Assembly: GCA_002221725.1 (NCBI GenBank)
Contig: NJFT01000162.1
Location: 28,512-92,511, forward strand
Direction: 5' to 3'
Source: Scedosporium boydii
Taxonomy: Eukaryota; Ascomycota; Sordariomycetes; Microascales; Microascaceae
Length of the DNA: 64,000 nucleotides
Of the stretch, positions 18,372 to 19,484 are shown in pieces. The position numbers were made by a program, and so were the translations under genes. The stretch's first letter is position 1; the number at the start of each line of letters is the position of its first letter. Under the pieces are notes generated by a model. The model saw nothing but the letters and a program-made list of their open reading frames with translations, made no database searches and was not told where the DNA came from.

Positions 18372-19484
18372 ATGAGTAGCCCTCGGAGGAGGATCGAGAC
18401 TGATGTAAGGGACCACGATGCTGCGCATTCATTCAAGCTCTCCCCGAAAGCTCTATAGGCTAACGCACTTTCCCTAGGTTATGAAGTATGGTCCATCATG
18501 ACTCTAAGTTTTGGAAGCGACTACTAACCGTTTATAGGATGTAAATTCTTAACTCTTGGCAAGCTGGCGCTAGAAGTCCTTACTGACCTCTTTAGGATGA
18601 TGAGCGATTACGAGGTAACGCTGGTGAATGATAACAGTAAGTAATCGACTCCAGACTTCCAGTGATACATTTCTTTTCACCTCCCTGTTTCCGAGCCGAA
18701 GGGTCTGCTAACCGTGGCTGCAGTGTAAGAAGATCCGTCCGGTGGCCAATTGACACTTCCTAACACGCGATCGACAGGCAAGAGTTCTACGTTCGATTCA
18801 ACGGCCCGGCCGAGAGTGAGTTATATACCAGAATCGCCCGCGGTCTTTGCATGGCGTCTTGCAGCAAACCAAGAAGCATTGGCTAACCGGCATAACACAC
18901 ATATAGCCCCGTTTGAGGGTGGGATCTGGAAAGTTAGTGTCGAGCTGCCCGATGCGTACCCATACAAGTCCCCGAGTATCCGATTCGCGAACCGAATATT
19001 CCACCCAAACATCGACGAACTGTGCGTATCCCATATACTCGTGCAGGGTTCTGGTTAATATCGTATGGAATCTAATCGGAGTTCTGTTCCGCTTCTAGGT
19101 CCGGATCAGTATGCCTCGACGTCATTAACCAAACGTGGTCCCCCATGTTCGACATGATCAACATCTTCGAGGTGTTCCTTCCTCAATTATTGCGGTACCC
19201 AAACCCAACCGATCCTCTGAATGGCGAAGCTGCAGCCCTCCTGATTCGGGAGCCTAAGAGCTACGACGCGAAGGTCAAAGGTGAGGAAATACTAGGGACA
19301 CGTGTGTTAGCTTTCGGCCGTACCTTGGCATACTAACCATCTACCAGAATACGTCCAGAAATACGCGTCTAAGGAAGCTGTAGACGAGGTAGGCGCGGAA
19401 AGCGAGGACGACGATGACCTGTCCTCGGTAGCCAGTTTCGGAGACGACGACGAGGAGCCCGCGGGGCAAATGGATGACGTATGA
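18372..19484 (+). CDS. ubc8: E2 ubiquitin-conjugating enzyme, Ubc8/UBE2H type, with micro-exons
   Basis: Proposed exons: 18372..18404, 18478..18485, 18538..18540, 18596..18636, 18724, 18778..18815, 18907..19021, 19099..19280 and 19348..19484; total 558 nt, 185 aa. Yeast Ubc8 takes part in glucose-induced degradation of gluconeogenic enzymes; UBE2H works with the CTLH/GID ligase. The UBC fold is complete: [11 protein letters not shown], then [29 protein letters not shown] and [15 protein letters not shown], with the active-site Cys at residue 85. From memory this is the same position as in yeast Ubc8. The tail is acidic ([10 protein letters not shown]), like UBE2H. The 3-nt and 1-nt exons are inferred from strong splice signals, the reading frame and family length, not from transcripts. 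Without them the model loses one residue (3-nt exon) or the frame (1-nt exon). An alternative using donor GTAATC at 18641 avoids the 1-nt exon but replaces a conserved Met by Ser-Lys. Confidence 0.92.
18478..18485 (+). other. ubc8: 8-nt micro-exon of ubc8
   Basis: GTTATGAA lies between acceptor CCCTAG and donor GTATGG. It encodes Val-Met and the first two bases of Lys14. The upstream intron has CTAAC at 18460-18464. Confidence 0.8.
18538..18540 (+). other. ubc8: Putative 3-nt micro-exon of ubc8
   Basis: GAT sits between acceptor TTTATAG (preceded by TACTAAC at 18522-18528) and donor GTAAAT. Inclusion gives V-M-K-M-M-M-S-D, the same length as V-M-K-L-L-M-S-D in yeast Ubc8. Skipping would delete one Met without a frameshift. 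Confidence 0.65.
18724..18724 (+). other. ubc8: Putative 1-nt micro-exon of ubc8
   Basis: A single T is flanked by acceptor GCTGCAG and donor GTAAGA. It joins A from exon 4 and G from exon 6 to make the ATG codon of Met29 in N-D-N-M-Q-E-F. Both flanking introns carry CTAAC branch-like sites (18708-18712 and 18760-18764). Confidence 0.6.

What the first reader, a model, noticed from the sequence alone, without database searches (positions are those of the whole stretch)
18636..18778. Single-nucleotide exon in the UBC8/UBE2H gene
Between exon 4 (ends 18636, donor GTAAGT) and exon 6 (starts 18778, acceptor CGACAG) the frame is off by one if joined directly. A lone T at 18724 is flanked by a full acceptor (CTAAC then GCTGCAG) and a full donor (GTAAGA). 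Using it restores N-D-N-M-Q-E-F, which matches N-D-S-M-Q-E-F of yeast Ubc8 as I recall it. One-base exons are known from very few genes (Arabidopsis APC11 is the published example I know). The weaker alternative, donor GTAATC at 18641, would give N-D-N-S-K-Q-E-F.
Basis: partly seen in the sequence, partly recalled or inferred. Interest (0 to 1): 0.88.

Follow-up and report, generated by a model that had tools for sequence, protein, structure and literature searches.

The report
One-letter exon in a ubiquitin gene
A fungal gene for a protein-tagging enzyme appears to contain an exon of a single DNA letter, next to others of 3 and 8 letters, and protein records from other mould-type fungi suggest that the one-letter exon is old, widely shared and missed by many genome annotations.

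Summary
Confirmed, and larger than first described. The gene at 18372-19484 is a fungal UBC8/UBE2H. Between its 41-nt and 38-nt exons the frame closes with the family sequence NDNMQEF only if the lone T at 18724 is an exon; that ATG codon then takes one base from each of three exons. The gene also has a 3-nt exon (GAT, 18538-18540) and an 8-nt exon (18478-18485).

Of 54 stop-free in-frame splicings enumerated, one gives NDNMQEF. The strict core signal was found 14 times in 42.9 Mb; none of the other 13 sites showed a convincing gene context.

No relative's DNA could be reached, but relatives' proteins are informative. RNA-like contigs keep the normal spacing (70 of 72 by script, the other 2 by eye), as do models outside Pezizomycotina (39 of 41, the other 2 by eye). 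Pezizomycotina genome models rarely do (21 of 146), and many errors look like translated introns: 15 read NDN-MY-(V/A/G), i.e. A|T|GTAYG, and 7 of 8 long inserts hold exactly one YAG|T|GTRNG-compatible spot.

So the exon seems conserved across Sordario- and Eurotiomycetes and in at least one Dothideomycete. One-nucleotide exons are known (plant APC11, VPS55; Fusarium CYP621A). RNA of this species was not examined.

The parts
18372..18404 (+). UBC8 exon 1 (33 nt, [11 protein letters not shown])
18478..18485 (+). UBC8 exon 2, micro-exon of 8 nt (GTTATGAA)
   Evidence: Preceded by CTAAC..CCTAG, followed by GTATGG; read-through TDVMKY followed by a residue of a G-starting codon in 7 of 146 relatives' genome models
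18538..18540 (+). UBC8 exon 3, micro-exon of 3 nt (GAT)
   Evidence: Preceded by CTAAC..TATAG, followed by GTAAAT; only one of 25 stop-free in-frame splicings gives VMKxxMSDYEV and it uses this exon; read-through TDVMKMY followed by a residue of a G-starting codon in 9 of 146 relatives' genome models
18596..18636 (+). UBC8 exon 4 (41 nt), ends with the A of the split ATG
18637..18723 (+). intron 4 (87 nt): GTAAGT, branch-like CTAAC 18708-18712, CTGCAG
18724..18724 (+). UBC8 exon 5: single-nucleotide exon T, middle base of the ATG codon (Met29)
18725..18777 (+). intron 5 (53 nt): GTAAGA, branch-like CTAAC 18760-18764, GACAG
18778..18815 (+). UBC8 exon 6 (38 nt), begins with the G of the split ATG
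18907..19021 (+). UBC8 exon 7 (115 nt)
19099..19280 (+). UBC8 exon 8 (182 nt), holds GSVCLDV with the presumed catalytic Cys
   Evidence: catalytic role recalled
19348..19484 (+). UBC8 exon 9 (137 nt) with stop codon
   Evidence: 558-nt coding sequence, 185 aa; Pfam PF00179 134.6 bits

Best explanation
The T at 18724 is a constitutive single-nucleotide coding exon of the UBC8/UBE2H gene. Introns 4 and 5 are ordinary short introns, each recognised across the intron by its own donor, CTAAC branch site and acceptor. They must be removed one after the other, because one base cannot hold the machinery of both neighbours at once. Either order gives A-T-G, and so Met29 in NDNMQEF. I think intron 4 is more often removed first: joining A to T changes the context of the intron-5 donor from AGT|GTAAGA to CAT|GTAAGA, a better match to the recalled CAG|GTAAGT consensus. 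Leaving T out shifts the frame and ends the protein before the presumed catalytic cysteine. Shown: anatomy, reading frame, uniqueness of the solution within the enumeration, imprint in relatives' proteins. Inferred: inclusion in this species' mRNA, the order of removal, constitutive use, and descent from at least the common ancestor of Sordariomycetes, Eurotiomycetes and Dothideomycetes.
For: One of 54 stop-free in-frame splicings gives NDNMQEF. Signals on both introns are comparable to those of the gene's other six. Best of six variants by profile score. Of 261 distinct proteins listed by three searches (120 listed of 5710, 5598 and 5676 matches), the nine-residue spacing is kept in 21 of 146 Pezizomycotina genome models, 39 of 41 other fungal genome models and 70 of 72 RNA-like short contigs; of the unanchored ones, the 2 and 2 in the last groups read normally by eye and the 16 in the first are disrupted by eye. 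Errors are specific: of 104 wrong-length Pezizomycotina models readable after ND(N/S), 19 read NDN-S-x-QEF, all with x encodable as NNG, as expected of a donor 4 nt downstream, and 18 read NDN-K-F, as expected of an acceptor 5 nt downstream; at this locus these are two of the four stop-free choices without an internal exon. 15 of 17 models with NDN-M followed by anything but Q read MY then V, A or G, i.e. A|T|GTAYG. 7 of 8 long inserts have exactly one YAG|T|GTRNG-compatible spot with both introns at least 40 nt (49/56, 47/52, 56/67 nt), 0 of 2000 shuffles reaching 7. Seven genome models that do not read NDNMQEF share an identical 137-residue tail with an RNA-like contig that does.
Against: No RNA of this species and no DNA of any relative was available. 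16 of 146 Pezizomycotina genome models read M at normal length and 5 read R: some lineages may have lost one or both introns, and R is unexplained. Two of 17 NDN-M inserts do not continue with Y, and one of 8 long inserts lacks the site. 45 of the 104 readable wrong-length models fall outside the donor+4, acceptor+5, MY and long-insert classes counted as specific, except that 25 of them begin with S and so fit reading into the intron-4 donor. Neurospora tetraspora (P0028, NDNKAMQEF) fits none of my classes. RNA-like status is inferred from short contigs with an uninterrupted frame, and groups were assigned by hand. Related sequences are not independent observations.
Confidence: 0.93

Rival explanations
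1. No internal exon: the donor at 18641 (GTAATC) joins to 18778, giving NDNSKQEF.
For: In frame and stop-free; 8 relatives' genome models read exactly NDNSKQEF, and 19 in all read NDN-S-x-QEF.
Against: Weaker donor; the profile scores it 8.7 bits lower; none of the 72 RNA-like contigs has a longer spacing (70 by script; 2 by eye), nor any of the 41 non-Pezizomycotina genome models (39 by script, 2 by eye).
Confidence: 0.03
2. No internal exon: the donor at 18637 joins to a downstream acceptor at 18782, giving NDNKFYV with two residues fewer.
For: In frame and stop-free; 18 relatives' models show the equivalent sequence NDN-K-F.
Against: GGCAAG acceptor inside conserved coding sequence; lowest score of the in-frame variants tested (346.3 against 361.9); not seen in the 72 RNA-like contigs.
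Confidence: 0.01
3. Assembly or sequencing error: a base was lost from an exon and the signals around T are coincidence.
For: A single missing base would also restore the frame.
Against: The spacing at the same codon is abnormal in 125 of 146 Pezizomycotina genome models (109 wrong length; 16 unanchored, disrupted by eye), and the signals would be coincidental at about 1e-5 to 1e-3.
Confidence: 0.01
4. A different single-base exon: G at 18702 (AAG|G|GTCTGC), giving NDNRQEF.
For: In frame; 5 of 146 Pezizomycotina models read R; its profile score is only 3.9 bits lower.
Against: The acceptor precedes the CTAAC of intron 4 and the donor GTCTGC is poor; none of the 31 RNA-like contigs of the first search reads R.
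Confidence: 0.01
5. Nested twin intron (stwintron) with the T as part of an intron.
For: Two adjacent introns with a one-base spacer resemble stwintrons, described in several fungi (listing).
Against: Removing the whole interval joins A to GCAAG and shifts the frame; T must stay in the mRNA.
Confidence: 0.01

Closest known systems
CYP621A single-nucleotide exon of Fusarium (Nelson and Syed 2026, PMC12940212; abstract, first of three parts of the text, and the discussion read)
   Same: Fungal nuclear gene; one-base exon supplies the middle base of a codon split over three exons; the authors report supporting SRA reads.
   Different: P450 gene reported in 20-24 Fusarium genes, exon G; here a ubiquitin-conjugating enzyme, exon T, imprint in at least three classes, with 3-nt and 8-nt exons beside it.
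APC11 single-nucleotide exon of Arabidopsis (Guo and Liu 2015, PMC4674806; abstract with introduction, and discussion read)
   Same: Constitutive one-base exon in a ubiquitin-pathway gene; sequential removal by intron definition proposed there.
   Different: Plant gene, unrelated protein (APC/C subunit); presumably an independent origin.
VPS55 one-nucleotide micro-exon of land plants (PMC8831610; passages read)
   Same: Conserved one-base exon missing from reference annotations.
   Different: Plant; in some plants alternatively spliced; protein unrelated.
Stwintrons of fungi (listing; passages of two papers)
   Same: Two adjoining introns that need consecutive splicing.
   Different: In stwintrons the internal intron splits a splice element of the outer one and the whole is removed; here T must stay in the mRNA.

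Membership tests
UBC8/UBE2H ubiquitin-conjugating enzymes | UBC fold and closest similarity to yeast Ubc8 and human UBE2H | tested here: met
   Pfam PF00179 134.6 bits; best PDB matches are 8pmq_E (labelled Ubiquitin-conjugating enzyme E2-24 kDa; yeast Ubc8 by recall) and the chains labelled Ubiquitin-conjugating enzyme E2 H, 8pjn and 2z5d (human by recall)
UBC8/UBE2H ubiquitin-conjugating enzymes | Catalytic Cys in GxVCLDVI | tested here: met
   [10 protein letters not shown] in exon 8; motif role recalled; activity not tested
Single-nucleotide exons | One base bounded by AG and GT with complete intron signals on both sides | tested here: met
Single-nucleotide exons | Base required to keep the reading frame and family sequence | tested here: met
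Single-nucleotide exons | Base present in mature mRNA of this organism | not testable with these tools
   No RNA of this species; RNA-like contigs of relatives read M
Single-nucleotide exons | Same split in relatives' genomes | tested here: inconclusive
   No relatives' DNA; strong indirect imprint in their protein models
Stwintron | Whole interval leaves the mRNA with no base retained | tested here: not met
   Joining 18636 to 18778 shifts the frame

The most novel reading that the evidence does not exclude
The one-base exon, together with the 3-nt and 8-nt exons, dates from the Pezizomycotina ancestor (Tuber, a Pezizomycete, shows the same donor+4 form) and has been kept because its inclusion works as an all-or-none switch for the enzyme that (by recall) serves the glucose-responsive GID/CTLH ligase: skipping T destroys the catalytic half of the protein.
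Probability: 0.12. Interest if true: 0.88.

Novelty: new member of a known kind. Interest (0 to 1): 0.74.

Why it matters
One-nucleotide exons test the limit of what the spliceosome can recognise, and few are documented. This one sits in a conserved enzyme gene, leaves its imprint in protein models of laboratory genera such as Aspergillus, and lies beside exons of 3 and 8 nt, so the order and fidelity of splicing around a single base could be studied with existing RNA data and simple genetics. It would also explain a recurrent annotation error: 125 of the 146 Pezizomycotina genome models examined here lack the normal spacing at this codon (109 wrong length; 16 not anchored and disrupted by eye).

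Tried and rejected
DNA of relatives: genome contigs (17 stretches matched a pattern, none a relative) and viral contigs (22 stretches, none a relative); a DNA pattern in viral contigs gave 15 stretches, none of which encodes a UBC8 by tblastn.

Other copies in the genome: one search listed 17 matches; 3 are exons of this gene, the other 14 (25-46% identity) look like other E2 enzymes. No second UBC8 seen.

Other one-base exons in this genome by the strict signal: the 13 other sites were fetched. Only one (L025) had both a possible upstream donor and a branched downstream acceptor at intron distance. It has an AT-rich repeat upstream and open frames on both strands, one reverse-strand frame running through the site; I think it chance but did not resolve it. 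Looser signals were not tried genome-wide.

RNA structure: the 220-nt stretch folds less stably than its shuffles (z +2.68, 200 of 200 shuffles at least as stable), so no structure argument is made.

Stwintron reading: rejected because T must remain in the mRNA. Passages of two stwintron papers searched for UBC8, micro-exons or one-base spacers held nothing on this gene. A third, on a single-nucleotide intron shift, is not held.

My first exon table ended exon 3 one base early; one search corrected it.

Literature searches for earlier reports of this exon. No listed title or abstract start names a UBC8/UBE2H single-base exon. One search showed 25 of 29 papers and one search showed 30 of 83; most papers were seen as listings only, and most subscription papers are not held. 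The fungal micro-exon paper PMC11121469 was seen as outline and abstract only.

Full report
The observation. The window lies in a 42.9-Mb genome of 442 contigs. At 18372-19484 on the + strand is a nine-exon gene whose 558-nt coding sequence (with stop) gives a 185-residue ubiquitin-conjugating enzyme (Pfam PF00179, 134.6 bits). Its best solved relatives are 8pmq chain E (labelled E2-24 kDa; yeast Ubc8 by my recall) and two chains labelled Ubiquitin-conjugating enzyme E2 H. Exon lengths are 33, 8, 3, 41, 1, 38, 115, 182 and 137 nt. The eight introns are 52-91 nt long, start with GT, end with TAG or CAG, and each has a CTAAC, CTGAC or CTAAT branch-like site.

Why the T is needed. The DNA reads AACA|GTAAGT ... 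GCTGCAG|T|GTAAGA ... GACAG|GCAAGAG. Joining exon 4 directly to exon 6 shifts the frame and leaves a 98-residue product. I enumerated GT donors and AG acceptors around the interval with at most one internal exon of up to 40 nt: 93 in-frame combinations, 54 without a stop, exactly one giving NDNMQEF, the one with T at 18724. Four of the 54 have no internal exon. No contiguous ATGCAAGAG exists at this junction, so if the mRNA encodes Met there, its T must come from a separate piece. Only two AG-N-GT strings lie in the interval, G at 18702 and T at 18724. Against a profile of 39 non-Pezizomycotina homologues the T model scores highest (361.9 bits), then the G exon (358.0), no 3-nt exon (354.8), donor 18641 (353.2), acceptor 18782 (346.3) and skipping of T (47.4). 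The first five differ little, so the profile supports but does not decide.

Chance. In the window the strict core signal (YTRAC, 3-25 nt, YAG, N, GTRAG) occurs twice over both strands; 0.00026 are expected in the 61 positions counted as admissible by a first-order Markov model and 0.00095 from the window density. In the whole genome CTAAC..YAG|N|GTAAG was found 14 times, UBC8 being one; its reversed control gave 51, so such strings do arise by chance, at about 1e-5 to 4e-5 per 61 positions. I examined the other 13: only one, L025, had both an upstream donor and a branched downstream acceptor at intron distance, and its surroundings do not look like such a gene, though I did not resolve it.

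The 3-nt and 8-nt exons. Between exon 1 and exon 4, 25 stop-free in-frame splicings were found with at most two internal exons; one gives the family's VMK-x-x-MSDYEV, and it uses the 8-nt exon GTTATGAA and the 3-nt exon GAT. Skipping the 3-nt exon keeps the frame but loses one residue (VMKMMSDY). Of 146 Pezizomycotina genome models 42 show the shortened form and 45 the two-residue form.

Relatives' proteins as intron fossils. No DNA of relatives was reachable, so I used proteins. Three searches listed 120 hits each out of 5710, 5598 and 5676, 261 distinct proteins. I grouped them by hand from the source and species columns (placement of most species is recalled; Hortaea, Lomentospora, Aspergillus niger, Tuber and Fusarium pseudograminearum were looked up): 146 Pezizomycotina genome models, 41 other fungal genome models, 72 RNA-like entries (short contigs or unnamed sources with an uninterrupted frame, RNA nature inferred) and 2 labelled as plants. 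The nine-residue spacing of TLVNDNMQE is kept in 21 of 146 (16 M, 5 R; 109 wrong length, 16 not anchored), 39 of 41 (38 M, 1 I; 2 not anchored) and 70 of 72 (67 M, 3 L; 2 not anchored) respectively. By eye, the 2 and 2 unanchored ones of the last two groups are normal with M, and the 16 of the first are disrupted at the site. The failure is thus tied to Pezizomycotina gene models, not to the protein. In the first search 31 of 31 RNA-like entries read M followed by QEF, against 12 of 89 NCBI-sourced entries by that script's stricter pattern.

The errors are what a one-base exon would produce. Of the 109 wrong-length models, 104 could be read after ND(N/S). 19 read NDN-S-x-QEF with x among K, M, E, T, Q, L, G, R, all encodable as NNG: this is AGT NN|G, the donor 4 nt downstream, as at 18641 here. 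18 read NDN-K-F, the acceptor 5 nt downstream, as at 18782 here. 25 more begin with S (AGY), as when the intron-4 donor is read through, and 20 begin otherwise without a class (I, R, T, K, N or M). Over all 146 models, 17 have NDN-M followed by something other than Q, and 15 of these read MY then V, A or G: ATG TAY GNN, i.e. intron 4 spliced to T and a GTAYG donor read through. They come from Fusarium and Beauveria; Aspergillus, Penicillium and Paecilomyces; and Hortaea: Sordario-, Eurotio- and one Dothideomycete. Eight inserts are long enough to retain both introns; in seven exactly one position is compatible with YAG|T|GTRNG with both introns at least 40 nt, with intron lengths 49/56, 47/52 and 56/67 (three distinct groups: two of Fusarium, one Aspergillus niger). 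A or G as the exon base fits none, C fits three through serine ambiguity, and 0 of 2000 shuffles reached seven (mean 0.2). The same read-through appears after exon 3 (9 models, TDVMKMY) and exon 2 (7 models, TDVMKY); all 31 read-throughs continue with a residue of a G-starting codon, against 19% of residues in the inserts, and none of the 113 RNA-like or non-Pezizomycotina entries shows these strings (related sequences, so nominal probabilities are not taken at face value). Seven genome models that do not read NDNMQEF have a 137-residue tail identical to an RNA-like contig that does.

What does not fit. Five models read NDNRQEF (Monilinia, Dothistroma, Ascochyta, Baudoinia, Terfezia); a one-base G exon or another splice could give R, and I cannot tell. 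Two NDN-M inserts (P0045, P0173) and one long insert (P0094) do not match, and Neurospora tetraspora (P0028) fits no class. Sixteen Pezizomycotina models are normal with M; lineage-specific intron loss or good annotation are both possible. Tuber (Pezizomycetes) shows the donor+4 form NDNSEQEF, which hints at a deeper origin but does not prove it.

Species. The C-terminal 137 residues match Lomentospora prolificans at 134 of 137, so the genome is probably from a Microascaceae fungus (inference). The L. prolificans model P0019 is disrupted at both micro-exon sites.

Mechanism. Short introns with their own branch sites favour recognition across each intron; two spliceosomes cannot share one base, so removal must be sequential, as Guo and Liu argue for APC11 (PMC4674806, discussion). 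After intron 4 leaves, the intron-5 donor has CAT|GTAAGA in place of AGT|GTAAGA, closer to the recalled CAG|GTAAGT consensus, so I favour intron 4 first; this is inference, and in the potato case that Guo and Liu cite the second intron was removed first. Skipping T removes the part with the presumed catalytic Cys (exon 8), so errors are all-or-none.

Known ground. One-base exons are documented in plant APC11 and VPS55 (PMC8831610, passages) and in Fusarium CYP621A (PMC12940212), whose authors call theirs the first in a fungal gene; a placozoan mitochondrial cox1 case was seen in a listing. My literature searches listed no report for UBC8/UBE2H; two of the lists were cut and the library lacks most subscription papers. 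The finding is a new member of a known kind, notable for its breadth and for the 8-, 3- and 1-nt exons in one gene.

Noticed in passing
   Followed up: yes
18478-18485: An 8-nt exon in the same gene, whose donor seems to be read through in 7 relatives' gene models.
   Followed up: partly
relatives P0061, P0069, P0161, P0165, P0187: Five Pezizomycotina models from distant groups read NDNRQEF, normal length with R in place of M; origin unclear.
   Followed up: no
protein P0001 (named Quercus suber): A record labelled oak holds two tandem copies of the enzyme sequence and tops all three searches; possibly a mis-assembled model.
   Followed up: no
L025:2064 (+ strand): The only other strict AG|N|GT site of 13 fetched with possible introns on both sides; probably chance, not resolved.
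   Followed up: partly
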